Part shown: positions 2,232 to 21,744 of the stretch, one piece after another
How positions within the stretch are numbered: the stretch's first letter is position 1
Layout of the letters: each line of letters starts with the position of its first letter
NCBI RefSeq assembly: GCF_013386165.1
Contig: NZ_JACAOS010000024.1
Span: forward strand, 1-64,000
Direction: 5' to 3'
Source: Pseudomonas gingeri
Lineage (GTDB): Bacteria; Pseudomonadota; Gammaproteobacteria; Pseudomonadales; Pseudomonadaceae
DNA: 64,000 bases
Program-made: the position numbers and the translations under genes
Notes under the pieces: generated by a model
Told to the model about the DNA's origin: nothing
What the model saw: the letters and a program-made list of their open reading frames with translations, nothing else
Databases searched by the model: none

Positions 2232-2243
2232 GGAATTTTCACC

Positions 2244-2756: not shown

Positions 2757-2779
2757 CAACAGATACAGAGCACAACAAC

Positions 2780-3784: not shown

Positions 3785-3793
3785 GGAGCAGTC

Positions 3794-5014: not shown

Positions 5015-5097
5015 GGCCTCGTTGAAAGTGGTTTTCGGCCAATCACGACGATCAGCCAGGCAGTTGATGTAAGGCAGGCAAGTGTTGGAGGCAAATC

Positions 5098-5562: not shown

Positions 5563-5874
5563 TCAAAACTTCAGCGGTCACTGTGATCTGTTTTGAGTGG
5601 TCGGTATCGACTCTGCATGGTCGTTGACCGGTCTACAAAACCACCGGAGATTCAGCCCTTTCCGCTCATCGCGCTATGAGTGGACTCGCCCCCCATCTAA
5701 TCGCAGCCAACAAATTCGTAGTCATACATCACGAATTGGCATCTCTGCGCATTGAGCATCACTACCCAAGCCTCGATAGCTCACCAGTCAGGTAGGTCGC
5801 GTAGGCGGCTTGCTTGATGGGCTCTATGCCCGTGCAATGACTTCATCCCGACTCTCTCGATAGGAACCCTGTAC
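5563..5874. other. Intergenic, no gene seen
   Basis: About 310 bases between the lipoprotein gene and the zinc-ribbon gene. No convincing reading frame, RNA gene or strong hairpin was found. It probably contains the promoter of the 5875 gene and may be a junction between the ars operon and the plasmid-type genes that follow. Confidence 0.5.
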
Positions 5875-6210: not shown

Positions 6211-6353
6211 ACTGCTCCTCTCCCGCTTGAAGCAATCGCTATTCACCATCTGATCCATCGCTTCTCCCCCTCTCGATCAACACCCCGCACGTCGACTGAT
6301 CCCTGCTGAATGCTCAGCGGCTTCGCCGTGCGCCTATGAAAAGGAAGCTCCCC

Positions 6354-7322: not shown

Positions 7323-7407
7323 AAAGCCCGCGCATAAAGGGAGGCCTACGCCTCCCTCATCCATAGGTTTTCTCTCAGTGATTTAACCCTTTCACCGGAG
7401 CTCCACC

Positions 7408-7737
7408 ATGCCCCCACGCTGCCTGATCTGCGATTCAAAGGCTGTACTGTCCAAAGAGGCCGCTAACGCTGCCGTCATGCTCATTGGGACCATTGATAGC
7501 TTTCTACTCAGTGTGCGCCAGGCCCATACCCAAGGCCTGGTAACTGACCCGGAAACCCGACCTGAAAGCCTGCTCGTGCAACTGCTCGACCTGATCGGCG
7601 AGAGCGTTTCCAGTGCGACATCTGGCTATACCGCCATGACGGCATTTGCCAGAGACGTGCAGAAATATCAATTCAACCACTATGACTTTCTCTGCTTACG
7701 CTGTGGGACCAAGTTCGATCAGAACGCCGAGACCTGA
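7408..7737 (+). CDS. Small zinc-ribbon-like protein
   Basis: Protein of 109 residues with CLIC at the N-terminus and CLRC at the C-terminus, again a split zinc ribbon. The intervening region is mostly helical and not glycine-rich. Both Cys pairs are placed as in the 5875 protein, and both C-termini read NY/HYDFLCLxCG-like, so shared ancestry is likely. Start ATG 7408 follows a CCGGAG site. It converges with the XRE regulator at 7755. Function unknown. Confidence 0.7.
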   Translation: MPPRCLICDSKAVLSKEAANAAVMLIGTIDSFLLSVRQAHTQGLVTDPETRPESLLVQLLDLIGESVSSATSGYTAMTAFARDVQKYQFNHYDFLCLRCGTKFDQNAET

Positions 7738-7754
7738 AAGCCCCACAGCCCCGA

Positions 7755-8102
7755 TCATGCCTTTGCTAGCCGTTCAGCCAAACGCTCAACCAGATCGAGG
7801 ATCAGCTGTCGATCATCCTGGCTCAAAGGCGTCAATAACCGACTGATCCGGCTGGCTTGGTCGTCCGGGCGCGAACTGACCTCGGTCAACAGTTCTGCCG
7901 CCTCGCAGTCAAAGATTCCCGCGAACGCTAGCAAGCGCTCAATGTTGGGAATCACGATGCCGCGTTCAATGCGGGAAACAGCCTCGTTGCCGATTCCCAG
8001 ACGCTCAGCCACTTCCTCCTGCGTCAAGCCACTGCGAATGCGTTGCTTGGCAATCGCACGCCCCACCACACCCGCCAAGTATTTCTGATCAGTCTCTATC
8101 AC
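7755..8102 (-). CDS. XRE-family helix-turn-helix regulator
   Basis: DNA-binding regulator of 115 residues. The HTH lies at about residues 15-70, with RIRSGLTQEEVAERLG and NEAVSRIERG as the two helices. The C-terminal part is a helical oligomerisation region. GTG 8102 is chosen because a GGGGAGG site stands four bases before it; the upstream in-frame TTG at 8120 lies inside the first operator-like repeat. The gene is divergent from the GYF_2 gene at 8234, and three inverted repeats fill the space between, which suggests autoregulation and control of the neighbour. Confidence 0.85.
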   Translation of the reverse strand: MIETDQKYLAGVVGRAIAKQRIRSGLTQEEVAERLGIGNEAVSRIERGIVIPNIERLLAFAGIFDCEAAELLTEVSSRPDDQASRISRLLTPLSQDDRQLILDLVERLAERLAKA

Positions 8103-8117
8103 GGCGCCTCCCCATCT

Positions 8118-8189
8118 CAACCTAGATGGTTGGGCATCACCTCATTGACATGAAGAACTCAACAGGTTGAGAATCAACCCTAAAGGTTG
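8118..8189. promoter_or_regulatory. Candidate operators of the XRE regulator
   Basis: Three inverted repeats share the same arms. CAACC-N5-GGTTG occurs at 8118-8132 and again at 8175-8189, and TCAAC-AG-GTTGA at 8159-8170. The repeated arm and regular layout between two divergent genes fit a dimeric HTH repressor. This is inference; the repeats themselves are read directly. Confidence 0.65.
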
Positions 8190-8233
8190 CTATTCGTCTA
8201 TTTGTGCCCACATCCAAAACCAAGGAATTTTCC

Positions 8234-8773
8234 ATGCCGGAAGCAACAAGCAGTGAGCAATGGTTTTACGAAGAGAAAGGCCAACGTCAGGCTGCCAATG
8301 AACAACAAATAGTCGCCCTCATCCGCTCAGGGAAGCTGACCTACGGCAGCCTCATTTGGAAAAAGGGGCTGGAAAACTGGATTCAACTCGAAAGGACGGA
8401 GTTTCTACAGCACCTCCAAACGGCTTCCCCGCCCCCGCTCACAGGCGCGAGCGTCAACAACACGCTGGTATGGCTACTGGCTTTAGCCCCGCTGCTTGGC
8501 TACTTGCTGGAAGCCTTCGTTGCGGGCGCCACGGGAGGTGGTCAGAGAGCGCTGAGTGATGGCCGTTACTGGTACCTCACCGTGATATTGAACGTCGCCT
8601 TGAGCCTGTTCGATGAAAAACGCCTTAAGAAAGCCGGGCACGACACCCGCCGCTTCAAGGGTTGGGTATTTATCGTACCGGTCTACCTGTACCAACGCGC
8701 CAAGATGCTGAATCAAAACTTGGCGTATTTCATCGTGTGGATTGGCAGTTTCGCTCTCACCTTACTTATCTGA
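8234..8773 (+). CDS. GYF_2-domain (DUF4339) membrane protein
   Basis: Protein of 179 residues. Residues 9-60 resemble the GYF_2 domain: WFYEEKGQRQ, then QIVALIRSGKLTYGSLIWKKGLENW. Three to four hydrophobic segments follow, including VWLLALAPLLGYLLEAF and a C-terminal helix ending at LTLLI. ATG 8234 is preferred because AAGGA lies seven bases upstream. GYF_2 domains bind short proline-rich peptides in known proteins; the partner here is unknown. It is divergent from the XRE gene and probably controlled by it. Confidence 0.8.
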   Translation: MPEATSSEQWFYEEKGQRQAANEQQIVALIRSGKLTYGSLIWKKGLENWIQLERTEFLQHLQTASPPPLTGASVNNTLVWLLALAPLLGYLLEAFVAGATGGGQRALSDGRYWYLTVILNVALSLFDEKRLKKAGHDTRRFKGWVFIVPVYLYQRAKMLNQNLAYFIVWIGSFALTLLI

Positions 8774-8824
8774 ATCATCTAATACAGCTGCTCACCGCCA
8801 TCAAACCATTAACAAGGAAATACC

Positions 8825-9676
8825 ATGAATTTGCCTGAAGATTTTTCTCCTGAACAATACCTAAAGTTACATCCCGATGTCAGAATGTCAGGACTTGACC
8901 CAGCACAACACTATTTGGCTTGGGGCCGTGGAGAAAATCGCAACTACAAACGAGACCCGAACTCCCTTTATCCAAAGGTAGAAGGGCGTTATTCCTCGGA
9001 TGGATTATCTTCAGTGCATAACCACGATTTCATGAGCGACGAGAGCTATATCACAGCGTATGCACGCGGAGTAGAAGCTGTCGGCTCTGACTACAAATGG
9101 TTTTGGCGTGTGCATATAGGGCTGTGGGCGGCGCGGACAGCCGCAAAACACAGCGGCGATTTTGTTGAGTGTGGAGTCAATTATGGTTTTCTAAGCTCAG
9201 CGATCATGAAAGATCTGGACTGGAACAATACAGGCAAAATCTTTTACTTACTTGATACATTTTCTGGCATTGATGACAGGTATCTATCCGAGCAGGAAAA
9301 AATTGGTGGCGTCGCGGACAAGAACCGAAAGTTAGTTGAAGACGGGACATATACGTCAAATATTGAATCTGTGAGGGAAAACTTTTCAGAGTGGCCTAAT
9401 GCAAAGGTCATACAAGGATCCATTCCCGACACCCTCGCTCATATCGACTCAACCCAAATTTCTTATTTACACATCGACCTGAACTGCACCGTTCCTGAAG
9501 TTGCTGCGATTGAGTTTTTGTGGGATCGCTTGGTCTCCGGAGCAGTAATTTTACTAGACGACTATGCTTACTACGGATACCAGCCTCAGAAAGAGGGTAT
9601 GGATCAATGGGCAGCAAAAATGAACATAGCGATAGCGAGCTTACCTACAGGACAAGGGCTTCTAATAAAACCTTGA
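8825..9676 (+). CDS. TylF/MycF-like SAM-dependent methyltransferase with N-terminal HPDV motif
   Basis: Protein of 283 residues. The N-terminus has YLKLHPDVRMSGLDPAQHYL, a motif that often precedes glycosyltransferase or polysaccharide-related domains. The main domain has the SAM site FVECGVNYGFLSS (about residues 113-125), the acidic loop YLLDTFSGID, and later ILLDDYAYYG, which together match the TylF class of sugar or macrolide O-methyltransferases. Base composition is more AT-rich than its neighbours, suggesting recent acquisition. No glycan operon is nearby, so the substrate is unknown. Confidence 0.78.
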   Translation: MNLPEDFSPEQYLKLHPDVRMSGLDPAQHYLAWGRGENRNYKRDPNSLYPKVEGRYSSDGLSSVHNHDFMSDESYITAYARGVEAVGSDYKWFWRVHIGLWAARTAAKHSGDFVECGVNYGFLSSAIMKDLDWNNTGKIFYLLDTFSGIDDRYLSEQEKIGGVADKNRKLVEDGTYTSNIESVRENFSEWPNAKVIQGSIPDTLAHIDSTQISYLHIDLNCTVPEVAAIEFLWDRLVSGAVILLDDYAYYGYQPQKEGMDQWAAKMNIAIASLPTGQGLLIKP

Positions 9677-9941
9677 TACTTATCTGCATTGCGCTATGGC
9701 TCGGTCTATAGCGCATACCGTTCCGATTTAGACCTTTACGCCGAAGTCTAAGCGCTAGACAAAGTACCTGGCTACTCTACGAAGTCAAGACATGGTATCC
9801 ACTCAAATAATCCGCCTCAACAAAATTGGGCAGTGGCATGCATATACCTGACCGACCTGAGCTCTGCACACCACAGGACCGAAATACGCGCTATTACACC
9901 TCAAATCCGCCGATTCATCTTCAAACACAAGGAACATATAA

Positions 9942-10529
9942 ATGCGCAAAAAACGTCTATTAGTCTCATTGTTTGGTTTGATCATCAACACATATTCCTT
10001 AGGAGCGGCTGCGTGGCAAGCAAACGAAATAGAAGAGTGCCCTACAAGTAAACGTAACTCGGCCTGGTTAGACTGCGTGCCTGAAGACACCCCTGTCAAA
10101 CTCCCCTACAAGATGAAGGATGGTAGCGTAAAGGTGCTAGAGACTCGCGGCACGGTGTTCTGCAAGCAAGGAATCTGCGAATATCAATATCAGCGTGACA
10201 GCGGCCTATGGGACTCAACCAACGAATACGCAGGACAAATCCAGCAAGCCCAAAAAACCCCCGTGGTTCTGTTACGAGGATACTACCTAGGAAACGCTGA
10301 GGATGGTCGCATCGTCGCGTACCTGAAAGGTACTGGACCGGAAGCGGGTGGCAAGGCTGCTCCAGCCTTGCAGAGCGTCACAACGAAGTCATTCAATCAA
10401 GCCAGTATAGATAGTTGTGTCGATCAATGGAGTAATGCGTTCCACAAGGAGAATGGTGAAGGCGCCTTGATTATGGCTGATATGCTCGACGAGTGGGAAA
10501 CTTTGTGTAACGCCGGCAAAAATCCATGA
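9942..10529 (+). CDS. Secreted protein, unknown function
   Basis: Protein of 195 residues with a signal peptide (MRKKR, a hydrophobic core, cleavage near AAA-WQ). The mature part contains six or more Cys residues, consistent with a periplasmic disulphide-bonded protein. ATG 9942 follows an AAGGA site. A hairpin terminator lies 20 bases after the stop. I do not recognise the family. Confidence 0.72.
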   Translation: MRKKRLLVSLFGLIINTYSLGAAAWQANEIEECPTSKRNSAWLDCVPEDTPVKLPYKMKDGSVKVLETRGTVFCKQGICEYQYQRDSGLWDSTNEYAGQIQQAQKTPVVLLRGYYLGNAEDGRIVAYLKGTGPEAGGKAAPALQSVTTKSFNQASIDSCVDQWSNAFHKENGEGALIMADMLDEWETLCNAGKNP

Positions 10530-10550
10530 TCGAAGGAAAAATCAAAAAGC

Positions 10551-10572
10551 GCAGCCAACTCTAGTTGGCTGC
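10551..10572 (+). terminator. Hairpin terminator after 9942 gene
   Basis: Nine-base arms GCAGCCAAC and GTTGGCTGC around a TCTA loop. The downstream T content is modest (TTGCTTAATT), while an A-rich run precedes it, so it could also act on the minus strand. Confidence 0.65.
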
Positions 10573-10710
10573 TTGCTTAATTCACCTGCCTAGTTAAATC
10601 GTTTAAGCACTTACTTCTGGCAGCATTTAGATTAACCATTTACCGCACAATAGTTAGAAAACCCATCGCCTGCATGACACACCTACTAGGACTCGGTGGA
10701 TTGTAATTTT

Positions 10711-10926
10711 CTAACCAACATCCATTCCCCGCAGTCGAGCCAGCCCCTGCTTAATATGGCCTGCGTTTTCGCCAATCGTGTGCAGCGCCCCCCGGACATT
10801 CTTACCAACCTCTGCCGAATCCCGCTGTTCCACGCATAACGTCAGCTCCATCACGGCAGCCTCCAGAGCGAGCTGGTTTTCATACATCCTTTCTAGCACA
10901 TCCGATAGCGAATAATTTCTTTGCAC
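10711..10926 (-). CDS. Small conserved helical protein
   Basis: Protein of 71 residues, mostly helical, beginning MQRNYSLSDVLERMYENQLAL. GTG 10926 is chosen because AAAGGAG lies eight bases upstream; the frame is open to 10953. Short proteins of this kind are common in Pseudomonas accessory DNA. Function unknown. Confidence 0.6.
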   Translation of the reverse strand: MQRNYSLSDVLERMYENQLALEAAVMELTLCVEQRDSAEVGKNVRGALHTIGENAGHIKQGLARLRGMDVG

Positions 10927-11410
10927 GACATCGACTCCTTTCAAGAAAACCAAAGCATAGCCTCTGCCTTATGTTCAATTCAGACGCATGGAGCGCTCCT
11001 GTACCGAGTGAAGCCTGCAGATGAGCCAGAATAGGGCGCATCTTCCCGTTGAGGGTTGGAATAATCTTTATCTCGTAGTCATCCGACAGGTGACCTGCAA
11101 GGTGGACAGGCGTGGGGGGCTTTACAGTCGAGCCATGCCCATTCGATTTTGCCCTCATCGAGATCGCCCCCGAGCGGGGACCCCACTCCACTACCGTCGG
11201 CGTCCCGCCCCTTGTATTAGTAGCCCCCCCAGATGCTGCCGCTCTTTCGTTTTCGGGTGCAGCGGATCATAGCGGCGAAGGCGCGAGAGGACGCTGCCGC
11301 ACTGGCTGCGGACAAGGTCAAGGTCAAACCGAGCCTCACTACGCCCAGGAGCGTACCGGCGGTGACCCGGCCCAGGCCGCCGCATTAATCATCGACCAGG
11401 AGTTGGGGCT

Positions 11411-11530
11411 ATGAGGCTGATGCTGATTGGGTTGGTTGTGGCGCTAGCGGGATGCGCGATGCGGCCGCCTGAGACGCTCACTATACGGGTGGATGTGCCG
11501 GAGCCCTTGCCGGGCGCCGGCTGCGGCCGG
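11411..11530 (+). pseudogene. Rz1-like phage lysis lipoprotein remnant
   Basis: The frame starts MRLMLIGLVVALAGCAMRPPE, a signal with lipobox LAGC followed by a proline-rich tail, as in phage Rz1 spanin lipoproteins. After about 40 residues the reading loses any lysis-protein character. The preceding frame ends ALIIDQELGL just across this start, as an Rz subunit would. Probably a decayed prophage lysis cassette. The lipobox is clear; the phage origin is inference. Confidence 0.45.
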
Positions 11531-11664
11531 CCTGAAGAAGGACAACACTCTGAGGTGAAGGGTGAGGGCGCTGCTGGCCGAGCGCCAACAGCGGATGGAG
11601 GGAGCTTGCAGCTGCGGTTGCTGCGTGTTGGTGATCCACCTGGCCGCAGAAACTGCTCGACTAG

Positions 11665-11757
11665 CAGGGCTCGCACGTACGCTGCTTGGCTTTTCTCGGC
11701 GGTACTTCGAAGATTCTGGTGCCGGACAATCTTCGCGGCGGCGTCACCAAGCGGTCG
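11665..11757 (+). pseudogene. istA: IS21-family IstA transposase fragment
   Basis: A stretch of about 30 residues reads SHVRCLAFLGGTSKILVPDN followed by LRGGVTK, which matches the catalytic core of IS21 IstA (consensus FFGGVP, then LVPDNL, then VTK). A stop precedes it and unrelated sequence follows, so only a fragment remains. Confidence 0.6.
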
Positions 11758-11763
11758 ATGAGC

Positions 11764-11988
11764 AGGCCACTCTCTCCAAGAACTCAAAGATTCATGGATC
11801 TTGCCTATCTTACCGACCAGCGCCCTGCTGACATACTCAAAACATCTGTAACGGATGCCAACAGCGGATTTCTGACGGTAAAACAGGGTAAGACTAACAA
11901 GTACCTGCCAATCTGCTCAGAGAATGGGAGAAATGCGTCTGACCTTAGCAACTTCCTCGATGCCCTGACAGAGCGAAAGCCATTATAA
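11764..11988 (+). pseudogene. Tyrosine-recombinase (phage integrase) core fragment
   Basis: The frame reads RFMDLAYLTDQRPADILKTS, then GFLTVKQGKTNKYLPI. This matches the first catalytic box of phage integrases, where the Arg of TGQRpsDil and the later Lys of qqKT are active-site residues. It is fused in frame to the IstA fragment and ends about 25 residues later without the HxxR and Tyr boxes. It may be the remains of the integrase that brought in part of this island. Confidence 0.6.
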
Positions 11989-12467
11989 AATTAAAAGTTA
12001 CAAGTCTGACCACAAACCAACCCAGGCTAATAATGAGTTATATCACACTGAAAAACAGATAGAATGAAGCCCGAGAGAAAGCAGTAATAAACTCAGTCGC
12101 CATAGCTGACTCTACACTAGCCGCAGCGATACACAGACTTCCAATTTCGCGATATCCAATCCAAAGAAACAAGTGAAATTCAGGACATTAATCATGCAAG
12201 TCGATCACTAACTCAACAGACACGAGAGACGACTAAATGATCCACCTCTGAACAGGCTAAATAGTAATCCCCACAAAGCAAATTACTCCACCTCACCGAA
12301 TTAAAACTGACAAACCCCGAAAACACACAACGCATACATTAATTAAAAAGAAGATCATCGCCTCACAATAAACATCGCCACAACAAAAAATGCTTTAGCC
12401 GTAGACCAGACACCACGACAGAGGAAGTGGCCTCGGCAATTGTAGAACTGCAGAGGCCATTTAAAAA
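11989..12467. other. AT-rich intergenic region, no gene seen
   Basis: About 480 bases, clearly richer in A and T than the core genes. No open frame of note and no clear RNA gene were found. It separates the integrase fragment from the convergent end of the NACHT gene. Confidence 0.5.
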
Positions 12468-15400
12468 CTACTCACTCAACCATGTATCTAAAATCGCTCG
12501 CGACTGCACTGGAGCGCTTGAGCGCTCCCTCCAATTTGAAAGTAAACCTTGAATATGTGATCTTGAGTAGTAATCCTCCCGATAGATATGAAGAATCTGG
12601 CCAACCAACTCCATCACTTCAACTTTGTTAGGATCAAAAAAACCCAATGAGTACACCAAACTCCCCACATACCAAACTGGTAGCTTGCTCTCGCAAAACA
12701 ACAAAACCAAGGAGTGATTATTTTTCTCAAAAAATGAATTAGCTACATTTGATTGTTCATCACCCGCTTGACAGATATAACAGCAAAATGCTGCAGCACG
12801 GTAGACCGTTTCCAGTTGCTCGTTCGTAAAAAGGCTGACAAGCATGTCATTATCTATCCCATACTGCTCCAACAAGGAATAAGCACTAATATCAAAATCG
12901 TCAATACCAGCTCTGCGTTCAGGAGAGATAAATATACGAGCAATCAGAGATAAAAAACCAACTTCCAAAGGCAAATTCAGGATAAATGCTTTAGCACGCC
13001 CTCTTTGAAAGGAAACATGCCCATCCAACGATAGCTTTAAAAAAAGCGGCCTGATTTTTTCAGAAAATTCTGGTAATTCTTCAAAAATATAACCCCAGGT
13101 ACTAAAATAATATACCATGACCTTGGGGTTTTTTACGATCACATCAAACATCAAATCCAAACATTCACGAGACCTGAATCTATAAGGAGCCTCATTAAAA
13201 TGCTCTGACTGCAACCAGATAGATATAGCTATTAATGGATGATATCTGGAAATAATTTCAAGAGTTTCCACCGAGTCGACAACCCCAACTTCCAAAACAT
13301 CAAAAACAGCCGGAACATCAAAGCCTTTTAACCTCCCCCCCGACAACAAACGTTCAAACTCATCTTGACTTATCGAGCTAAAGAACCCCAACTGCTCCTT
13401 CAACTTATCTCCCGCCATTTCCGTATCAAAATTTATCGGAAGCAGGACTTGAATATATGGTGGGAGAAACATATCACCCAGGCCAAACGACACCATAGTA
13501 GACAAGATACTACAAAGGTCCTGCAGGCGTTTCCCCCTGGCAAAGCTGACAACATTTGCCATCAACTTCAAAATTGGCGACCTTATACTTGAACAACCAA
13601 TGTCGAAATCCATATTCTCAGGAATAGTTTTTGTCTTCCAGTCATGCTCATAGTTTAGGATCGATATGCCATCCAACTTAGCATGGACCTGCTTATTGAA
13701 TTTTGAAGTATCCGCATGATCAACGAGCAACATAAGTAGCTTAATTTCATCTTCTGAGAGCCCCATCGACCTAGCTATTTCCTCCACGTTTTTTACACGT
13801 CTCAAAATACGCACAATAGACCAAAACTCAACTTCACTACTCGGTGCTTCTTCAATAAGCAACTGCAAAGTGCCCTCTAAGAACCAATAACTAATCGATA
13901 CACCTTCAGAGGCTGCATACATAGAATAATGATCTGCCAAATACGACCTGTAAATTCTATTTATATAATCTACTGAGGAACCAAAAATCTTGGTCTTTAC
14001 CTCAGATTTTCTAGCGTGGTCATCAGGCAACTTCCTAGCAAGGACGATTGCAGCCCCAATTTGCTCTGGCTCACTGTATTCGAAGAGCGCATCAGCCATA
14101 CAATTTAAAAGCCACGATAGTGTATGCGGGTGATGCAAAGACAAAATATCAGATATAATTTCCATTTCAACCATTGCATAAAGAGGCACCAGCGCCTCTT
14201 TAAATTTCAACCGCGTAATTCTATCCTGCTCAAGCACACCCTCATTTAACAGACGCAACGTTAAAATTGCACCAACACCTAGCCGCCGCTTAAATATTCG
14301 TATCGCATGGGAAACGTCACTATCATCAAGACTGCAGATGACCTCTAAAGCAACAGCCAGCTCTGTTGGCCTCATTGTCACAATTAAAGCGCTTACAACA
14401 AAATGCATTACCTCCCGCCAATGAGAGTCTCCACCAATCACCTCAAGACGAGAGCGCAGCCGAGAGGGATCAACATTAGAATAAATAAACTCACCTGCAA
14501 AAAACTCTTGCAATTGCCGTATATCAAACCTGACAGTTTTATTACTCTCAGGGGTATTTACGAAGACCAGTCGCTCCGTGGTTGCCTCCATCAGCGTTTC
14601 AACCAAGTCGTCAACATTATCATCAACATAACGCTCCGTGGTTTGTCTTGCTAGATGGCAAAACTGCTCACGATCTAATGTAGTGTCCGCACCATCACTT
14701 ATCTCTGCACTTGCGTGCAATGCGATACCCAAGCGTGCATGAATCGCCTTGAGTAAAACGCTATTTTCTCGCAACAGCTTAGAAATCCTTACATCCGGAA
14801 AGTTTTTAAGACTTTCTCTTTTTTTCATTACATCATAAAAATTATCAAACAACTCCCATCTTTTCTCGGGCGGTCGCCCGCCATCACGGACCACCACTGC
14901 CATAATATGCGACTGCAAAGGTGTCGTCATTAGCTCCCTTACCTGAGCAGACTCCATCGCCGCTGACAATACCTGTATTGCATTTTCGCTTTCAGAATCA
15001 CTTCTACCAAACCTTATCACGCCTTCAGCACACTTCATTGCGATTTCGGCAGGAAGTGGCACCAAATCTAAAGTAGCTGCATTTAAATATTCAAATTGTC
15101 CTGAATAGCCTTGAGGCCTCGTAGTGCACAAAACAAGTATATCTGCATCAAGTTCTGGCAATACTGTATTAGTAAGCCTGATTATTTCATTTGCAACCTC
15201 ATCTTTTACATCATTCGGAACTTCATCAAGACCATCAAAATTTAGAAACCAGCTCCTTATAGAAAAGGCTTTTTTAAGTGTACCACCTTCAACTTTCTGA
15301 TCAATTTTCTGCGAAATTTTCTCACACAAATAAGAGAGAACCCCTTTTGCCTCATCATCAGATCTTGCGCCATACCATGACGCATAATCTTTTAATTCAA

Positions 15401-16415
15401 CACTAATTGGAATTCTTGGATTACTTGGTTTGAACCCTAACGCCTCAGCAACTATAAGAAATTCTTTTGCCACATCTAACGTAGCTGGTAAAACCACCGG
15501 AGCACTTGGGTCAAGTAGAAGTGTGGCACGCTGAATTTGAGAGAAAAATTGCCCTGCGGTGGACTTACCTTGACCAGGCCCACCTTTTAATAAAATGGCC
15601 CTTGCACGTTTGGGAATATTTGACCAAGCACGCCAACCATCTCCATATGAATTCCAAACAGTAGGCCTATGAGCGTTAGCAGAGGTAGCTACAAGTGTCT
15701 CCATTATACTTAATTCATCATCAACACATTTATTTTCAGCAGGCAAGTCCACAAAAAGCTCATGAATTTTCGGCCTAACGCCTGAGGAGCCAGCTTGCTC
15801 AAGCTTTGTGTATATCTGATCGTTAAACTGATCCAGTATAAGGTGATTTATAATAGGCTTTACCTGTGCAGATGCTTCACCTATTTGATTGTACATTGCG
15901 GTCAGCACGTTCCCCGGGGTAAGAAAGTGACCATAATAGGAGGCGGCAGCAGGATCATCTGCAAGAAAATCCAATATCTTCCTCCCCCCCCAAATATCGA
16001 ACTTTATCTCATCGCCAAAGCACTCAAAAACCAAAGATTTAATCGTATCGTAAGCTCCAGTATTCGGCGTTCCGGAGGGCTCTATATTTGTAGCTATGAT
16101 CCAGATATCCGGTGCGACTCTAGAATCAGCCCCATCAAACTCTGCGAGCTCTTTTTTAACTTCATTGATGAGCCAAGCTTGAGGATTCTTGGACAAGTGC
16201 GACTTATGGAACTTTGATTGAATATACCAGACACCACTCCATCGATCAGTTGTTGATGGATAAGGAGCCTCACCGGACAGCAGCCCATCTCGACCGCCAT
16301 CGGCGCCTTGCGCGAACCCCGTGACTCCTTTGCCCAACACCTTCAAGGCTAAGTAATTAACTAAATGTTCAAAAGAGTGAGAGTCCAGCTGAGTTAGCTC
16401 ATAGGTGTCAGTCAT
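12468..16415 (-). CDS. PD-(D/E)XK nuclease-NACHT STAND NTPase, candidate anti-phage defence protein
   Basis: Protein of about 1,315 residues. Residues 1-150 look like a Mrr-type PD-(D/E)XK nuclease: SFEHLVNYLAL, then GADGGRDGLL, then WYIQSKFHK, giving the E...D...QxK pattern. A NACHT NTPase follows with Walker A LLKGGPGQGKST (about residue 272) and Walker B WFLNFDGLDEVP (about residue 393). The remaining 850 residues are long, helical and repetitive in character, suiting a sensor region. Nuclease-NACHT fusions of this design are known bacterial NLR-like (bNACHT/Avs-type) defence proteins that sense phage and cut DNA. ATG 16415 is preferred over TTG 16430 because GGAG lies nine bases before it. 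The gene stands alone and is AT-rich against the core genes, which fits transfer. The domain calls are read by eye; the defence role is inference. Confidence 0.82.
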   Translation of the reverse strand: MTDTYELTQLDSHSFEHLVNYLALKVLGKGVTGFAQGADGGRDGLLSGEAPYPSTTDRWSGVWYIQSKFHKSHLSKNPQAWLINEVKKELAEFDGADSRVAPDIWIIATNIEPSGTPNTGAYDTIKSLVFECFGDEIKFDIWGGRKILDFLADDPAAASYYGHFLTPGNVLTAMYNQIGEASAQVKPIINHLILDQFNDQIYTKLEQAGSSGVRPKIHELFVDLPAENKCVDDELSIMETLVATSANAHRPTVWNSYGDGWRAWSNIPKRARAILLKGGPGQGKSTAGQFFSQIQRATLLLDPSAPVVLPATLDVAKEFLIVAEALGFKPSNPRIPISVELKDYASWYGARSDDEAKGVLSYLCEKISQKIDQKVEGGTLKKAFSIRSWFLNFDGLDEVPNDVKDEVANEIIRLTNTVLPELDADILVLCTTRPQGYSGQFEYLNAATLDLVPLPAEIAMKCAEGVIRFGRSDSESENAIQVLSAAMESAQVRELMTTPLQSHIMAVVVRDGGRPPEKRWELFDNFYDVMKKRESLKNFPDVRISKLLRENSVLLKAIHARLGIALHASAEISDGADTTLDREQFCHLARQTTERYVDDNVDDLVETLMEATTERLVFVNTPESNKTVRFDIRQLQEFFAGEFIYSNVDPSRLRSRLEVIGGDSHWREVMHFVVSALIVTMRPTELAVALEVICSLDDSDVSHAIRIFKRRLGVGAILTLRLLNEGVLEQDRITRLKFKEALVPLYAMVEMEIISDILSLHHPHTLSWLLNCMADALFEYSEPEQIGAAIVLARKLPDDHARKSEVKTKIFGSSVDYINRIYRSYLADHYSMYAASEGVSISYWFLEGTLQLLIEEAPSSEVEFWSIVRILRRVKNVEEIARSMGLSEDEIKLLMLLVDHADTSKFNKQVHAKLDGISILNYEHDWKTKTIPENMDFDIGCSSIRSPILKLMANVVSFARGKRLQDLCSILSTMVSFGLGDMFLPPYIQVLLPINFDTEMAGDKLKEQLGFFSSISQDEFERLLSGGRLKGFDVPAVFDVLEVGVVDSVETLEIISRYHPLIAISIWLQSEHFNEAPYRFRSRECLDLMFDVIVKNPKVMVYYFSTWGYIFEELPEFSEKIRPLFLKLSLDGHVSFQRGRAKAFILNLPLEVGFLSLIARIFISPERRAGIDDFDISAYSLLEQYGIDNDMLVSLFTNEQLETVYRAAAFCCYICQAGDEQSNVANSFFEKNNHSLVLLFCESKLPVWYVGSLVYSLGFFDPNKVEVMELVGQILHIYREDYYSRSHIQGLLSNWRERSSAPVQSRAILDTWLSE

Positions 16416-16720
16416 GCTTCCATGCTCCAATGGTCTATATAGGCAGTAATTTTTTCAGTGAGAGGCAGATTTCAGACTCCGATAGTAGCAGACAGAATAT
16501 TCAGCTACAACGCAAGCGTCAGCGATTGTCAAAAATTATTATTTCCATTTTATCTTGCTTACTGAAACTCAATGACATTGCATACAAAATTGATTGAGCT
16601 ATAGCAACGGTATCACGAGAAAAAAAATAACGTTATTTTACAAAAAATCTAATTACCTAAGAGCTCACAGACTATGAGTTTTTGGCTACGTTGTGGAACA
16701 CATAAGTTCTTTAAGAGTTG

Positions 16721-16767
16721 GGGGTGAGGTCGGAATCGAACCAGCGTAGATGGATTTGCAATCCACA
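16721..16767 (-). tRNA. 3' portion of a tRNA-Cys(GCA)-like gene, degenerate
   Basis: Read on the minus strand, an anticodon arm with loop TTGCAAA (anticodon GCA) is followed by a variable region and a T arm GCTGG-TTCGATT-CCGAC and then CTCACCC. The T stem has one mismatch and one wobble, no matching 5' acceptor or D arm precedes it, and the end reads CAA, not CCA. It is therefore a fragment, possibly an old attachment site. Confidence 0.45.
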
Positions 16768-16889
16768 CGCCCGCGTGGACTAGTAATGCTAGAGACACAT
16801 CTGCTGGTGCCTAGCCGACATACGTGAGTCCAGTCTGTGGGCTATTGGTGCATATGGCCCAACATTGAGTCAAGCTGACGACCATCACC

Positions 16890-17291
16890 TCATCCAGTCG
16901 CCTCGTCTAGCTCCTGACCACTGAGCAGCAGCCGGATTCTATCGACCAGCGCATTCATCGCTTGAGCAGTGCTTAGGTAGCTCGTTTCCGTACTGTCCAT
17001 GTATACCATCCCCAACGGGGTGCGTTCGAGCCCAATCTCCTGGTACGCCATCCAGAACACCTCTTGATGTTCGTCATCGCAGCGATTGGCGTACTCCTCG
17101 TTAATCTGCGGCACGCAGTCGAATAGCATGGAGAGCGTTGTCGATTTGACCAGCTCATCGCCCAGCTCATCCAGGGTGACCAGGTAGGCCGGCCCGCTCG
17201 TGCAAGCGACCGCCTCCATCAGTCGGCCGATGGCGATAGCAACGTGTGATTCAGATAACGGAAGTCGCGGATTGATGTATGGAAGAAGCAT
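16890..17291 (-). CDS. Hypothetical acidic protein
   Basis: Protein of 133 residues, acidic and helical, beginning MLLPYINPRLPLSESHVAIA. No motif was recognised. It lies 84 bases after the Gp2/YagK-like gene on the same strand and probably belongs to that satellite-like module. Confidence 0.6.
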   Translation of the reverse strand: MLLPYINPRLPLSESHVAIAIGRLMEAVACTSGPAYLVTLDELGDELVKSTTLSMLFDCVPQINEEYANRCDDEHQEVFWMAYQEIGLERTPLGMVYMDSTETSYLSTAQAMNALVDRIRLLLSGQELDEATG

Positions 17292-17375
17292 GCTCGTACC
17301 TGCTGGAGAATAGATCCATTGAGTATGGGATGAGCTCAGTAACTCACCCCTGGCACGAAGCCCAGTGATGTTGGT

Positions 17376-18065
17376 TCAGCCTCTGCTGCAACCAAACGCC
17401 CGGCATCGACTGCCGTAGTCCTTGGTAGCGGCCTTACAGAGGTAGCTCGCTCGATGGAAGTACCGATTCATCTCTGCGGGATCATCCCGAGAGAGGTGGA
17501 ATGTGGCGTTTGCAGGGATATGCACCAAGCCCTCGACATAGTCGAAGTGAATCCTCAGCGCACTGGCCCATGCGGCCTGGATGCGGGTGTACAAGTTCTC
17601 CCGCTCAGATTGAAAGCGTCCCACCGTGTGGAACGCATCCCTGTTGAGCAGCAGGACGAAGTGGAAGTGCGGGCGCCCTTCCTGTCCGACCTCTCTGACC
17701 CAGCACCAGCGAACGCTTGTCTGATGGGCAGAGCCATTCAGACGCTTGGCGCGCTCACGTGCAATTTCAATCCTTACAGACAAGGAAGCGACAAACCTGG
17801 AGATAACGGCGTTGCTTGATGCAGGTGGCAGATAGTCATTTGGAAAGCGCAGATCGAAACGTAGCGCGAACACCTGACGATGGGCGCTCAGTGCCAACTG
17901 AGTGGTTTCAAGAAGGCTGTCGAGGTATTCAGTAATGAAGGGGACGTGGAATGCCATCACGGGTAGACCGCGGAAGGTGTTCTCGTAGTACAGATGAAGG
18001 TTGCTGTTGCCGGGGTGACGCTTGGGCTGGTGCGCCATGGAGGATGATCCGCTGAGTGAATTCAT
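17376..18065 (-). CDS. Inovirus Gp2 / YagK-YfjJ-like replication protein
   Basis: Protein of 229 residues. The centre reads GRPHFHFVLLLNRDAF, an HxH motif with flanking hydrophobics like the metal-binding HUH motif of rolling-circle initiators. The C-terminus reads NRYFHRASYLCKAATKDYG, typical of the YagK/YfjJ family found in inovirus-like and satellite elements. A Tyr in that segment could be the nicking residue. The start at ATG 18065 has no strong ribosome site; ATG 18038 is an alternative. It lies below the alpA gene and next to a perfect hairpin at 18346. A replication role is inferred from the family. Confidence 0.72.
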   Translation of the reverse strand: MNSLSGSSSMAHQPKRHPGNSNLHLYYENTFRGLPVMAFHVPFITEYLDSLLETTQLALSAHRQVFALRFDLRFPNDYLPPASSNAVISRFVASLSVRIEIARERAKRLNGSAHQTSVRWCWVREVGQEGRPHFHFVLLLNRDAFHTVGRFQSERENLYTRIQAAWASALRIHFDYVEGLVHIPANATFHLSRDDPAEMNRYFHRASYLCKAATKDYGSRCRAFGCSRG

Positions 18066-18345
18066 AGACTCAGTGGGCTGGGTATTTATTTACGATTCGA
18101 TCTACCTGGGGGACTGACCTCGGCTCAGCGTATGGCGCTGATCCTGTCACTGGATGAGCAACGCCGGGATGACTGAGCGCGTGGCACTTACCCCATTGAG
18201 GGGTAAGCCTGATAGGTCTCTGAATGGAGCTTGTAGATTGGTAACCGCATTGGATGAACAAGACGTATGAGCTGACGCTACAAATATCTCGTATAAATAT
18301 TACTTACGACTATAAATCATATAAATAATACTAATACCGAAATCT

Positions 18346-18377
18346 GCTACCCCACTCCCGCAAGGGAGTGGGGTAGC
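18346..18377. repeat. Perfect 14-bp hairpin with GCAA tetraloop
   Basis: Arms GCTACCCCACTCCC and GGGAGTGGGGTAGC enclose GCAA. No T-run follows on either strand, so it is not a normal terminator. It is flanked by a very AT-rich stretch (about 18285-18340) and sits 280 bases before the start of the HUH-like gene, a layout that suits a replication origin or a structured RNA. Confidence 0.7.
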
Positions 18378-18513
18378 GAAGTGCCAGAGAACGAGGGATG
18401 AATGGGACTATTTCAGTGATTCAGATACTCTGGAAATAAACTACTGATTGGAGCCATTCGATCAGCACGAACGCCGACCGAATGACTGGGTGCAAGCTCA
18501 GCCCATCGACTGA

Positions 18514-18735
18514 TCACGCAGCCTTTAGCTGTGACACCGAAGCGAGAGACTCGTGAGTATCACGGGCCTCGATCCTGGCCATAACCCAACCCATCACTTC
18601 GCTTTCAACCCAGCCGACAGCCCTGTCACCCAATGACACTGGCTTCGGAAAGCTCCCCTCGCTGATGTACTTGTAGATCGTGGACCGACCCAGGCCGGTG
18701 GCGTGCTTGACGTCTTTCAGGCGAATGATCCTCAT
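18514..18735 (-). CDS. alpA: AlpA-family phage/satellite regulator
   Basis: Protein of 73 residues, MRIIRLKDVKHATGLGRSTI, then KYISEGSFPKPVSLG, the standard AlpA/MerR-like winged HTH. ATG 18735 lies seven bases after GAGGAG; the frame is open to 18870 but that extension runs through a G homopolymer. AlpA proteins activate excision or early genes in P4-like and other integrative elements. It lies upstream of the Gp2-like gene on the same strand. Confidence 0.88.
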   Translation of the reverse strand: MRIIRLKDVKHATGLGRSTIYKYISEGSFPKPVSLGDRAVGWVESEVMGWVMARIEARDTHESLASVSQLKAA

Positions 18736-18840
18736 GAACTGGCTCCTCTGTATTCCGTTCAGAGGATTGGGAGATCCTGTAAAGAAATACGCGCCACGCC
18801 CATCAGAGCGTGAACCCTCCTGGTTTGCCGAAAAGTTCTC

Positions 18841-18852
18841 GGGGGGGGGGGG
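18841..18852. repeat. 12-G homopolymer upstream of alpA
   Basis: Twelve consecutive G residues about 105 bases upstream of the alpA start. Such tracts can slip during replication or be miscalled during sequencing. Confidence 0.9.
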
Positions 18853-19518
18853 CTGAATCAGCACCGGCATCTCCTGCGCTGAAGTAGTGGCCGCAAACTG
18901 GCGTCACTTAGCGTAAGAGCTTAAATGGCCAGTGGCGGTTGAGCCAGCACATCCATTTCCGCATCAGGCAGTTTCACTGATTCCTTAGCCAGACCAGGAT
19001 GCGCGACGACGAATCAATTCTGCCGTGCATAGACCAAGGATCGTCTATGCACGCACCTGGCGATGACCGTCGCCTCAGCCGTCCACCCAAGACGACAGAT
19101 GCCTACCTCAATCATTCGCTCCGCGTAGTAAGCGAGTCTCACTGGGACTGGCGGACACGGCCCATCAACGCCCGCATAGCGCCGCCAACCTCACCAATAC
19201 TCGATACATCCCCCAGGAGCATTGCAAAGCATCACTGGCGTCCTCATGAGAGCTCCCAAAAATGGCCTTCCTAAAAGCCGTAGCGATTCACATGGTGAAG
19301 GTCCGCTATCTACTGTTAAAACACTGAAAATAACGGCTACAAAGCCTTTATTCATTAACTATCAAAGATAAATAAAAACCTAGAATATTCATAGAGTAAA
19401 TATAGAGCCGTATTTGATTTACCATAGATAGTCTATAGGTTATACCTAGAATTCAGATAGAATCACGAACTCAAATGATAACAATTCTCAACAGAGAATT
19501 TACAAATAGGCTTTTGCC
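18853..19518. other. Intergenic with AT-rich segment, no gene seen
   Basis: No open frame has support from codon use or a ribosome site. The right part (about 19310-19480) is very AT-rich and includes the near-palindrome CTATAGGTTATACCTAG, and likely holds the promoter of the 19519 gene. Confidence 0.45.
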
Positions 19519-20433
19519 ATGGGAAAGAAGGATGGTCTTGTCTTTAACGATGACTGGCACGATGAGCTGGCACGACTGCTCGACGAGCACCAGCCGAACA
19601 ATCGTCATGACATTTGGTTATGGTTACACCTATGCCGCGACGAGCAAGCCGGCTTCGACCCTGCCAGCTGCAACGGCAGGACCATGCGAAATGAAATCGC
19701 CCGATGGCTGAAAGACAAGACTGATCTCCGCACAGACATCCCGTCACTAAAGGACAGGCGTCTGGTTCCAGACGCCAAGTTAAAGTGGGTTGACGAAGGT
19801 GAAAGGCAGTATCGATGGCTGCTGCACAGAGTTGTGGGCATCACTGCTTCAAGGCCTCCTCGGGAGCTACCTGACGGTTTAGAGCACCTCACCGACAAAA
19901 ATCGCTTCATCGCCATGCTCGATCTCTGGGGTGTCAACCTTAAAATTAAATCAGATGCCATCGAAGATCTTCGCAACGCTTGGTGTAAACACAAAGCGAA
20001 GGACCGTGACTTCGAGTGGTTCGAAGACAAAAAGGACGGCGCCCGACGCTGCAAATGTGCCTGGGAGTGGCTAGAGAAAAACCATACCCCCCTACCTGAA
20101 GAGCAGCGCCCCATCAGCAACTACCAAGAACTGCTCATGTTCTTCGACCAAGCTTATCTTCGAAGCTATGAACAGAAGACGATGATCCAAGAGATCAAGA
20201 AGCGATGGAGTCGCCAGCAGTTCGATGATCGCAACGCTGACAAGAAGCAAGTTAACATCATGCTGTCGAAAACAGTCATCACTCTTCTTGATGAACTGGC
20301 CAAAAAGCATGATCAGAAACGAGCCCAAGTCCTAGAGCACCTAATAACGATGGCGTCCGAGCAAGGCATGATAGAAAAAACACTTCACCCGTCACGCACC
20401 GGAAGAGGCAGCGACAGAGACCGGCAGCAGTAA
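19519..20433 (+). CDS. Element-associated protein with RHH-like C-terminus
   Basis: Protein of 304 residues. The N-terminal 220 residues are rich in Trp, Asp and Lys and unfamiliar. Residues about 240-280 read KKQVNIMLSKTVITLLDELA, followed by RAQVLEHLI, which resembles a ribbon-helix-helix DNA-binding unit of the MatP/Arc kind. It begins at ATG 19519 with only a weak AGG upstream. It is followed by a strong hairpin terminator and lies close to tRNA-Ser. It may bind DNA of the element, but the function is unknown. Confidence 0.65.
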   Translation: MGKKDGLVFNDDWHDELARLLDEHQPNNRHDIWLWLHLCRDEQAGFDPASCNGRTMRNEIARWLKDKTDLRTDIPSLKDRRLVPDAKLKWVDEGERQYRWLLHRVVGITASRPPRELPDGLEHLTDKNRFIAMLDLWGVNLKIKSDAIEDLRNAWCKHKAKDRDFEWFEDKKDGARRCKCAWEWLEKNHTPLPEEQRPISNYQELLMFFDQAYLRSYEQKTMIQEIKKRWSRQQFDDRNADKKQVNIMLSKTVITLLDELAKKHDQKRAQVLEHLITMASEQGMIEKTLHPSRTGRGSDRDRQQ

Positions 20434-20481
20434 ACCGACGCAAACATCCCCCAAGCGATCATTGATGTAGCCCAGTCGCCC

Positions 20482-20520
20482 ACCCTGCGCCTCAGAGCCA
20501 AAAGGCTCTAAGCGCAGGGT
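20482..20520 (+). terminator. Terminator-like hairpin after 19519 gene
   Basis: Outer arms ACCCTGCGC and GCGCAGGGT, inner arms AGAGCC and GGCTCT, loop AAAA. No T-run follows, so it may stop transcription only partly or protect the mRNA 3' end. Confidence 0.6.
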
Positions 20521-20821
20521 CGGAGCCCACTTCAGCACTCATGAGTGATAAGACCAATCCAGTGACCGACGATCACTGTTAGTGAAAGCCAGCAGGCACA
20601 GCGACTCAATACAGGGATTGCGACATGACGACGATAGAGTGCAGACCGACCACGCACAGCAAGGCCGCAGATGGCTAGGTCGCGCACGTCATACGATCTG
20701 ATGAGTATTTTTATGCCAGACGCTCACACCGCTGCATTCACACCCCTTTAAAGGGCGGCGGAGCAAAATCACACAAAAGCAGAGTGGGGGAACAAATGGG
20801 GGAACAGAAACCACAGAAAGC

Positions 20822-20849
20822 AAAAAGGCCCCATAAAATGGGGCCTTTA
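20822..20849 (-). terminator. Rho-independent terminator of tRNA-Ser
   Basis: On the minus strand, AAAGGCCCC and GGGGCCTTT form a stem around ATTTTAT, followed by a T-run. It lies 10 bases beyond the CCA end of tRNA-Ser. Confidence 0.85.
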
Positions 20850-20859
20850 AGTACAAGTA

Positions 20860-20949
20860 TGGCGGAGAGATAGGGATTCGAACCCTAGGTACCGGTGAAG
20901 GTACAACGGATTTCGAATCCGTCCCATTCGGCCACTCTGGCATCTCTCC
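20860..20949 (-). tRNA. serU: tRNA-Ser(CGA)
   Basis: A full 90-base class II tRNA with the acceptor pair GGAGAGA/TCTCTCC, D arm, anticodon loop TTCGAAA (anticodon CGA), a long variable arm, the T arm GGTTCGAATCC and an encoded CCA. This gene is a common integration site in Pseudomonas. The accessory region to its left adjoins its 3' end, as expected for an integrative element, though no duplicated 3' end was found inside the window. The symbol is a guess by analogy. Confidence 0.95.
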
Positions 20950-21033
20950 AACGGCGCGCATCATAACAACACTTTTGCCGGAAGCGAAGCCCCAATTGCA
21001 AAAAAATTACGTGCTATCAGATGCTTGCGTCGA

Positions 21034-21744
21034 TTACAGCGGTACACCCAGACGATTGGCGACTTCTTCGTAGGCTTCGATGACATCACCGAGCCCCTGG
21101 CGGAAGCGGTCCTTGTCCATCTTCTTGCGTGTTTCCTTGTCCCACAGGCGGCAGCCATCCGGGCTGAACTCGTCGCCCAGGACGATCTGGCCGTGGAATA
21201 CGCCGAACTCCAGCTTGAAGTCCACCAGCAGCAGGCCGGCTTCGTCGAACAGCTGGCTCAGCACTTCATTGACCTTGAGCGACAGCTCCTTCATTCGAAC
21301 AAGCTGCTCGGCAGTCCCCCAACCGAACGCCACGACGTGGGATTCGTTGATGAACGGGTCGCCCTTGGCGTCGTCCTTGAGGAACAGTTCGAAGGTGTAG
21401 GGGTTGAGCTTCAAGCCCTCTTCCACGCCCAGACGCTTGACCAGGCTGCCGGCCGCGTAGTTGCGCACCACGCATTCCACCGGGATCATGTCGAGCTTCT
21501 TCACCAGGCATTCGTTATCGCCCAGCAGCTTGTCGAACTGGGTCGGGATACCGGCCGCTTCGAGCTTCTGCATGATGAAGGCGTTGAACTTGTTGTTGAC
21601 CATGCCCTTGCGGTCCAGCTGTTCGATGCGCTTGCCGTCGAACGCCGAGGTGTCGTTGCGAAACAGCAGGATCAAACGGTCGGCGTCATCGGTCTTGTAA
21701 ACCGATTTGGCTTTGCCGCGGTAGAGTTCTTCACGTTTTTCCAT
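21034..21744 (-). CDS. purC: Phosphoribosylaminoimidazole-succinocarboxamide synthase (SAICAR synthase)
   Basis: Cytoplasmic purine-synthesis enzyme that joins CAIR and aspartate using ATP. It has 236 residues, the usual bacterial length, beginning [20 protein letters not shown]. Other signatures are [15 protein letters not shown] and [10 protein letters not shown]. The gene overlaps the end of the MBL-hydrolase gene by 14 bases and is the last gene of the dapA-bamC-MBL-purC run. Confidence 0.97.

What the first reader, a model, noticed from the sequence alone, without database searches (positions are those of the whole stretch)
12468..16415. Solitary nuclease-NACHT protein, a probable new member of the bacterial NLR-like defence families
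A PD-(D/E)XK-like N-terminus (GADGGRD ... IQSK), intact NACHT Walker A and B boxes and an 850-residue helical sensor are seen in one AT-rich gene standing alone in a mosaic island. The architecture matches known anti-phage bNACHT/Avs proteins. The sensor region shows no repeat family I recognise, so the trigger may be new.
Basis: partly seen in the sequence, partly recalled or inferred. Interest (0 to 1): 0.78.

Follow-up and report, generated by a model that had tools for sequence, protein, structure and literature searches.

The report
Prophage-carried nuclease-NACHT bacterial immune receptor
The gene encodes a bacterial relative of animal NLR immune receptors, with a DNA-cutting front end, an ATP-driven switch and a fast-changing sensor; its relatives ride on prophages and plasmids of unrelated bacteria, it is probably an anti-phage receptor, and the overall design is already known.

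Summary
Window 12468-16415 (minus strand) is one intact 1315-residue gene. Its N-terminus carries a Mrr-like PD-(D/E)XK motif set; the middle is a NACHT module whose best solved matches are NOD2, NLRC4 and NLRP3; the last ~510-575 residues (not 850) are a mostly helical sensor in no Pfam family. Full-length relatives at 39-77% identity occur in Pseudomonas, Vreelandella, Peristeroidobacter, cyanobacteria, a Klebsiella plasmid and prophages. In P2-like prophages they sit between portal gpQ and gpA, a published antiviral hotspot. The closest relative lies between a tRNA-Cys and a phage integrase; the window keeps decayed pieces of both in the same order, so the gene is probably cargo of a decayed prophage. 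The effector-NACHT half is conserved, the sensor hypervariable; between two cyanobacteria, at one locus, a ~290-residue sensor block differs far more than the rest, at silent sites too. Most likely an NLR-like abortive-infection receptor: the sensor detects a phage cue, NACHT oligomerises, the nuclease cuts DNA. Activity and trigger are untested, and nuclease recognition by sequence is weak. The architecture is known: a new subfamily of a known kind.

The parts
12468..16415 (-). nuclease-NACHT-sensor gene, 1315 aa, stop included
15921..16415 (-). residues 1-165: Mrr-like PD-(D/E)XK nuclease domain (E16, D39, D43, Q66-S-K68)
   Evidence: weak support in 83, none in 81
14316..15890 (-). residues 176-700: NACHT module and following helical domains, NLR-like fold
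15558..15584 (-). Walker A, GGPGQGKST, residues 278-286
15216..15239 (-). Walker B, FDGLDEVP, residues 393-400
15105..15119 (-). RPQGY, residues 433-437, invariant in 12 sequences; sensor-1-like position (label recalled)
12606..14015 (-). residues 801-1270: hypervariable helical sensor, 18-24% mean pairwise identity among 12 members
12471..12605 (-). residues 1271-1315: better conserved C-terminal cap (WRERS..PV....L..WL), 39% mean identity
16710..16766 (-). decayed 3' part of a tRNA-Cys, probable attachment-site relic; 89% identical to the tRNA-Cys beside the same gene in L019
11776..12237 (+). remnants of the C-terminal part of a phage integrase, broken frames; match the L019 integrase
11051..11270 (-). 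remnants of the N-terminal part of the same integrase type, on the other strand and broken

Best explanation
It is an NLR-like anti-phage receptor carried as cargo by a now decayed tRNA-Cys prophage or similar integrative element. Proposed working: the helical C-terminal part holds the protein inactive and senses a phage-derived protein or a phage-caused disturbance; ATP-bound NACHT modules then oligomerise; this brings the Mrr-like PD-(D/E)XK domains together; they cut DNA (phage, host or both), stopping the phage by abortive infection. Shown here: gene, motifs, NLR-like fold of the predicted model, conservation pattern, mobile-element setting of relatives. Inferred: ATP switch, oligomerisation, DNA cutting, phage sensing, abortive outcome.
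For: Intact 1315-aa frame with catalytic and Walker motifs. Nuclease: in a 22-row alignment reaching down to 20-35% identity, D39, Q66 and K68 are in all 22 rows, E16 in at least 90%, position 43 is D or E; Mrr_cat matched in 12 of 22 at E<=1. NACHT: Foldseek best E 6.6e-10 to NLRC4 and 5.9e-8 to NOD2; VIA Z 18.8 to NOD2 (376 residues, rmsd 16.6, so the domains are placed differently) and 17.9 to NLRP3 (249 residues, rmsd 3.4); Avs3 also matches (E 5.9e-5). Setting: portal (phrog_68) and gpA (phrog_91) flank it in L020, L021, L022 and in E. coli L014; that place is a published antiviral hotspot (PMC9122126, section 10 read). Closest relative L019 (77%) sits between an intact tRNA-Cys and an integrase. 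Effector half conserved, sensor not: window-L019 dN 0.066 vs 0.313. Published parallel: bNACHT25/32, PD-(D/E)XK-NACHT, DNA degradation on infection (PMC12169576, passages).
Against: No activity data. Nuclease recognition by sequence is weak (window E 0.0061 for the isolated domain, 0.088 for the whole protein, below Pfam's cut-off); a PDB search with the nuclease profile found nothing at E<=10; hhalign to E. coli Mrr gave probability 13% over 41 columns; the domain was not searched alone by fold. Pfam NACHT does not reach E<=1 for the window protein, 7 of 12 members at <=0.1, and a whole-family profile found no NLR among PDB sequences (best E 0.17, unrelated): the NLR link rests on motifs and predicted fold. 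Chromosomal neighbours show no clear defence enrichment: 72 flanking ORFs gave 27 PADLOC families at E<=1e-10, each of the 25 shown in one ORF (best PDC-M06B, 1.1e-73; several Cas12f, Cas4, ZorB rows may be TnpB, nuclease or MotB relatives), and 10 ORFs of the L001 and L009 flanks gave one match, GlgB type. No match at E<=1e-5 in 50,697 phage records.
Confidence: 0.78

Rival explanations
1. It protects the resident prophage or plasmid rather than the host cell: a superinfection-exclusion or inter-element competition device aimed at related phages, satellites or plasmids.
For: Found in P2-like prophages at the gpQ-gpA place, next to a phage integrase and tRNA-Cys and on a plasmid typed as conjugative. 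A P2-hotspot system can act against P2 itself (PMC9122126, section 10).
Against: Nothing here separates the two: the same machine would serve both. Relatives also lie in cyanobacterial and Vreelandella genomes, but their flanks were scanned for defence genes only, not for phage genes.
Confidence: 0.3
2. A NACHT-type regulator or stress switch of the cell, not a defence protein.
For: STAND proteins include transcription regulators (general knowledge); chromosomal neighbours are not clearly defensive.
Against: N-terminal nuclease motifs; rare and patchy: 4 of 398 genomes of the genus, the own and two distant ones included; hypervariable sensor; prophage cargo places.
Confidence: 0.07
3. A decaying, non-functional relic: its element is broken, so the gene may be inactive too.
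For: Integrase remnants and the tRNA-Cys piece beside it are broken; two cyanobacterial relatives have truncated frames (L002, L005).
Against: Full-length frame with all motifs intact; against L019 the first 690 codons show dN 0.066 with dS 1.83 (near saturation), i.e. strong constraint since they parted.
Confidence: 0.1

Closest known systems
bNACHT25 / bNACHT32 (bNACHT clade 6, PMC12169576)
   Same: PD-(D/E)XK DNase effector, central NACHT, C-terminal sensor in one protein; anti-phage with DNA degradation on infection.
   Different: Those carry an NCH1 domain; bNACHT25 (and potentially bNACHT32) needs host DnaJ. No NCH1 match at E<=0.1 came up here, but it was not verified that the library holds that model. 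Their sequences could not be fetched, so relatedness was not measured.
Mrr_cat/SIR2/TIR-STAND-repeat proteins of prophage hotspots (Rousset 2022, PMC9122126)
   Same: Mrr_cat nuclease, STAND NTPase and C-terminal repeats (P4 hotspot, passage); the gpA-gpQ place of P2-like phages is the second hotspot, and NLR is an abbreviation in the legend of its figure.
   Different: Supplementary lists could not be read, so whether this subfamily is among them is unknown; here relatives also occur far outside enterobacteria.
Avs1-4 (AVAST; Avs3 8dgc, Avs4 8dgf)
   Same: STAND receptor with N-terminal nuclease and large sensor (recalled); Foldseek matches the models (Avs3 E 5.9e-5; Avs4 E 1.9e-3).
   Different: The solved chains are 2028 and 1541 residues against 1315; no Avs row in PADLOC and no NCBIfam match at E<=1.
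Animal NLRs (NOD2, NLRC4, NLRP3)
   Same: NACHT plus following helical domains, best solved matches by fold.
   Different: Nuclease instead of CARD/PYD and a helical sensor instead of leucine-rich repeats (their layout recalled); 9-17% identity in the aligned rows.
PDC-S73 (PADLOC candidate, 752 aa)
   Same: N-terminal ~175 residues match weakly (E 4.8e-4; 7 of 12 members, best 6.3e-6).
   Different: In the window protein only residues 4-177 match; the rest does not.

Membership tests
Bacterial NLR-related NACHT (bNACHT) proteins | NACHT Walker A and B in a STAND module | tested here: met
   GGPGQGKST and FDGLDEVP; invariant in 12 aligned sequences apart from position 282, >=90%; Pfam NACHT in 7 of 12 members at E<=0.1, best 1.8e-4, not in the window protein itself
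Bacterial NLR-related NACHT (bNACHT) proteins | NLR-type NACHT fold | tested here: met
   AlphaFold models of mean pLDDT 78.9 and 82.4; best solved matches NLRC4, NOD2, NLRP3, above the unrelated AAA+ rows that begin near Z 12.5
Bacterial NLR-related NACHT (bNACHT) proteins | Effector - NACHT - sensor tripartite layout | tested here: met
   nuclease motifs in 1-165, NACHT and helical domains to ~700, variable helical region to 1270
Bacterial NLR-related NACHT (bNACHT) proteins | Protects against phage, Walker A dependent | not testable with these tools
   no experiment
bNACHT clade 6 | NCH1 domain after NACHT | tested here: inconclusive
   no NCH1 among Pfam matches at E<=0.1 in 12 members, but it was not verified that this Pfam copy holds an NCH1 model; clade 6 sequences not held
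PD-(D/E)XK (Mrr-like) nucleases | Catalytic E...D...QxK motifs | tested here: met
   E16, D43 (D/E), Q66-x-K68; Q66 and K68 in 22 of 22 rows, E16 >=90%; DGGRDG pairs with DGGIDG of E. coli Mrr in a low-probability match
PD-(D/E)XK (Mrr-like) nucleases | Core fold with catalytic residues on the central sheet | tested here: inconclusive
   helix 12-27, strands 43-53 and 58-68, helix 78-94, strand 104-109 in the model, with pLDDT about 49 for residues 31-40; domain not searched alone; no PDB sequence match
Avs1-4 (AVAST) | Match to Avs family models | tested here: inconclusive
   no Avs row in PADLOC for the window protein (E<=1) or the 12 members (E<=0.1), no NCBIfam match; it was not checked which Avs models those libraries hold; fold matches to Avs3/Avs4 chains
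Avs1-4 (AVAST) | Recognises phage terminase or portal | not testable with these tools
   needs co-expression assay

The most novel reading that the evidence does not exclude
A bacterial NLR subfamily built as constant effector-NACHT half, exchangeable sensor cassette of about 290-470 residues, and a better conserved 45-residue C-terminal cap, with the cassette replaced by recombination between alleles, several of which ride on prophages and plasmids. Each cassette would read a different phage protein, so the family would be a natural library of sensors sharing one trigger mechanism. In L002 vs L004 (one locus; collinear flanking pieces 89-95% identical) the block 841-1130 has dS 0.245 against 0.044 upstream and 0.081 downstream, and dN 0.157 against 0.004 and 0.025; 0 of 5000 permutations reach the synonymous contrast (window position free, its length fixed after seeing the data). 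This is one pair; in L004 vs L005 only dN is raised.
Probability: 0.3. Interest if true: 0.6.

Novelty: new member of a known kind. Interest (0 to 1): 0.42.

Why it matters
It extends the nuclease-NACHT design to a subfamily shared by proteobacteria and cyanobacteria and found in P2-like and tRNA-Cys prophages and on a plasmid typed as conjugative. The sharp split between a conserved trigger half and a hypervariable helical sensor, with two related allele pairs differing mainly in the sensor, makes it a good system to ask how bacterial NLRs acquire new phage specificities. If the sensor proves to be an ordinary solenoid binding a known phage protein, it is simply one more bNACHT.

Tried and rejected
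Identity of the sensor: no Pfam repeat family; the single DUF2802 match (E 0.0015, below its cut-off, residues 859-897, one member of 12) looks like chance. Importin-13 rows in Foldseek (E about 1e-3, rmsd 32-33) are too poor to name a HEAT or ARM fold. The sensor was not searched alone.

Operon partner: none seen. Consensus promoter and terminator scans gave 6 and 1 sites against 9.4 and 4.1 expected, so they tell nothing. No Rfam match at gathering score in 5000-21500 other than the tRNA. Att repeats of the tRNA-Ser end: no exact 16-base copy, either strand, of 20700-20974 elsewhere in the window.

Clade assignment within bNACHT: bNACHT25/32 sequences not obtainable; Kibby 2023, Bechon 2024 and Gao 2022 papers not held. 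Publication of this subfamily: a search for three protein accessions and PDC-S73 found 0 papers; in the listings I saw no title or abstract start that names it; supplements could not be read, so 'not in print' is not claimed. Papers seen: PMC9122126 (passages, section 10), PMC12169576, PMC13092281, PMC12724215, PMC10907252, PMC12931631, PMC7159879 (passages only).

Defence-island association of chromosomal copies: tested and not convincing. For one search I gave 72 of the 94 ORFs that one search found in the flanks of L001-L005, L007 and L009 (150 ORFs over all 12 loci); mostly short ones were left out. One search does not say which ORF matched.

Positive selection in the sensor: not shown. 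Regional dN/dS stays under 1 (0.63 in L002-L004; about 0.65 in L004-L005); dS is at or near saturation in the other pairs. The E. coli pair L014/L015 differs by one base.

Rows left out before counts: one search used 12 full-length members, leaving out the truncated or partial L002, L005, L006, L008, L023, the near-duplicate L015 and all distant ones. A4 used 22 rows, leaving out among others L002, L015, L016, L023, L025-L027, L029, L030, L034. Genome samples overlap; L054 holds an exact 60-base piece of L001, so it is probably the same strain or a close one.

Change after re-check: confidence of the main reading set to 0.78 (0.80 in the draft), because the whole-family PDB profile search had been left out.
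Full report
WHAT IS THERE. The minus-strand frame 12468-16430 is open, and the ATG at 16415 gives 1315 residues. The start lines up with those of the relatives. The gene has GC 0.42 in a window of 0.55, and 200 shuffles of the gene give stop-free runs of at most 228 codons. The main correction is the size of the sensor.

PARTS. Residues 1-165 hold E16, D39, D43 and Q66-S-K68. In a 22-row alignment that reaches down to 20-35% identity (a viral contig and plasmid relatives from Actinomycetota, Priestia and Variovorax), D39, Q66 and K68 are invariant, E16 is at least 90%, and position 43 is D or E. Mrr_cat is the only Pfam family that recurs, 12 of 22 members at E<=1, best 0.0039. On the other side: no PDB sequence match with this profile at E<=10, and only 13% probability over 41 columns against E. 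coli Mrr, although that short match pairs the DGGRDG and DGGIDG stretches. The model gives helix 12-27, strands 43-53 and 58-68, helix 78-94, strand 104-109, with low confidence for residues 31-40; the order is that expected of the fold (general knowledge). Residues 176-700 form a NACHT module with helical domains. Unrelated AAA+ rows begin near Z 12.5, so the NLR match stands clear of them. By sequence alone the link is weak: Pfam NACHT in 7 of 12 members and not the window protein, no NLR in a PDB profile search. From about 740 on the model is mostly helical (61% helix); the whole model of 176-1315 has mean pLDDT 82.4 and pTM 0.72.

CONSERVATION. Among 12 full-length members the mean pairwise identity is 62% (1-170), 44% (171-260), 55% (261-440), 62% (441-690), 39% (691-800), then 18-24% from 801 to 1270, and 39% for the last 45 residues. 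Against the closest relative (L019) identity is 86-92% up to residue 800 and 50-70% in 801-1270; dN is 0.066 in the first 690 codons (dS 1.83) and 0.313 in 801-1270 (dS saturated). The pair L002/L004 sits at one locus in two cyanobacteria (collinear flanking pieces 89-95% identical). Residues 1-840 are 99% identical (dS 0.044, dN 0.004), 841-1130 are 71% (dS 0.245, dN 0.157), 1131-1320 are 94% (dS 0.081, dN 0.025). The synonymous contrast was reached in 0 of 5000 permutations, with window position free and length fixed. A raised dS largely confined to the sensor suggests that this block was exchanged. L002 has an in-frame stop near the end of this block, so one allele may be dead. In L004/L005 dS is level (0.77, 0.73) and dN rises from 0.084 to 0.472 over 183 compared codons of a truncated frame. 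So block exchange (one pair) and fast amino-acid change (both pairs) are seen; positive selection is not shown.

SETTING. In the window the gene lies between integrase remnants (11051-11270 and 11776-12237, matching the L019 integrase in five pieces at 42-70% identity) and a 57-base tRNA-Cys relic at 16710-16766 (89% to L019). A 96% match to the whole tRNA-Cys of L019 lies on another contig of the genome (C23:781379), with a second partial copy 1.4 kb on. In L019, a viral contig, the order is intact: tRNA-Cys 21-94, gene 469-4419, integrase 4532-5599; further on come an AAA_21 ATPase, a 242-residue protein that I take for HNH-like by eye (no Pfam match), and an S24 repressor. I read the window copy as cargo of a decayed prophage of this kind, now inside an island with AlpA (18514-18870) and YfjJ-type (17376-18065) genes near a tRNA-Ser at 20860. 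In L020, L021 and L022 the gene lies between portal (phrog_68) and gpA (phrog_91), with one extra ORF in L022; in L023 only the gpA side is held. E. coli L014 has the same place, with a portal gene marked as incomplete and gpA annotated in full; L015 shows the gpA side only. This place is the published P2 hotspot of antiviral systems (PMC9122126: passages, section 10). The Klebsiella plasmid copy starts 2.6 kb from a Lit-family phage exclusion gene. Chromosomal flanks gave no clear defence association and were not scanned for phage genes.

SPREAD. 7 of 9 loci of genome contigs match to residue 1313-1315 (in L002 and L005 the frame is broken); 4 viral contigs match over the full length, one from residue 327, three are distant; 1 of 28 matching plasmids covers at least 80%; 3 of 5426 E. 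coli genomes match at DNA level with 28% of the query covered (the two genes fetched are 1330 aa). No match in 50,697 phage records. Own genome included, 4 of 398 genomes of the genus match at E<=1e-10 (one more at 45% over the full length, probably the L001 strain, and two distant ones), 3 of 398 in the family, 2 of 369 in the class, 5 of 398 in the phylum with a profile at E<=1e-20 and 3 of 57 near relatives at E<=0.001. Patchy presence fits horizontal transfer.

HOW IT WORKS. The nearest tested parallels that I could read about are bNACHT25 and bNACHT32: N-terminal PD-(D/E)XK DNase, NACHT, defence lost in the D48A mutant, DNA degraded on infection, bNACHT25 sensing through host DnaJ (PMC12169576, passages seen). 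I propose the same logic here: sensor engagement, NACHT oligomerisation, nuclease activation, DNA cleavage, abortive infection. The trigger is unknown; the variability of the sensor argues for a phage protein that varies, or for several different ones, rather than a single fixed host guardee, but this is inference.

VERDICT. A true feature, correctly read in outline, most likely defensive. The kind is known: NLR-like nuclease-NACHT proteins, including Mrr_cat-STAND proteins in a phage-satellite hotspot, are in print. What this adds is a defined subfamily, its prophage cargo positions, and a sensor that varies far more than the rest and in one pair seems to have been exchanged as a block. Interest 0.42; the cassette reading would deserve 0.6.

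Noticed in passing
window 37796-39899 (-): A Septu-type pair: PtuA-like ATPase (485 aa, PADLOC E 1.1e-160) and PtuB-like protein (238 aa, E 2.6e-78), a second defence system in the window.
   Followed up: partly
window 48788-61918 (-): A 4376-residue open frame with a low-GC end (47-50 kb); its length and layout suggest a filamentous-haemagglutinin or contact-dependent type protein (guess; not searched).
   Followed up: no
window 43761-44903 (-): A 380-residue ORF whose residues 2-44 match a reverse transcriptase model (E 9.9e-10): truncated or fused RT remnant.
   Followed up: no
L019 8343-10467: AAA_21 ATPase followed by a 242-residue protein (HNH-like by eye, no Pfam match) in the closest relative's prophage, a Septu-like arrangement about 4 kb from the NACHT gene; not scanned against PADLOC.
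   Followed up: partly
window 17376-18870 and 20860-20949: AlpA regulator and YfjJ-type gene near a tRNA-Ser(CGA): looks like a CP4-57-type island; no intact integrase was recognised among the ORFs scanned there.
   Followed up: partly
own genome C23:781379-782854 (L047, L048): A full tRNA-Cys match with a second partial copy 1.4 kb downstream, suggesting another tRNA-Cys-targeted insertion in the same genome.
   Followed up: no
L033, L034, L035, L036 (actinobacterial plasmids): Distant relatives with the same nuclease-NACHT half but annotated proteins of only 713-963 residues, so a much shorter sensor; L035 may be split by a frameshift.
   Followed up: no
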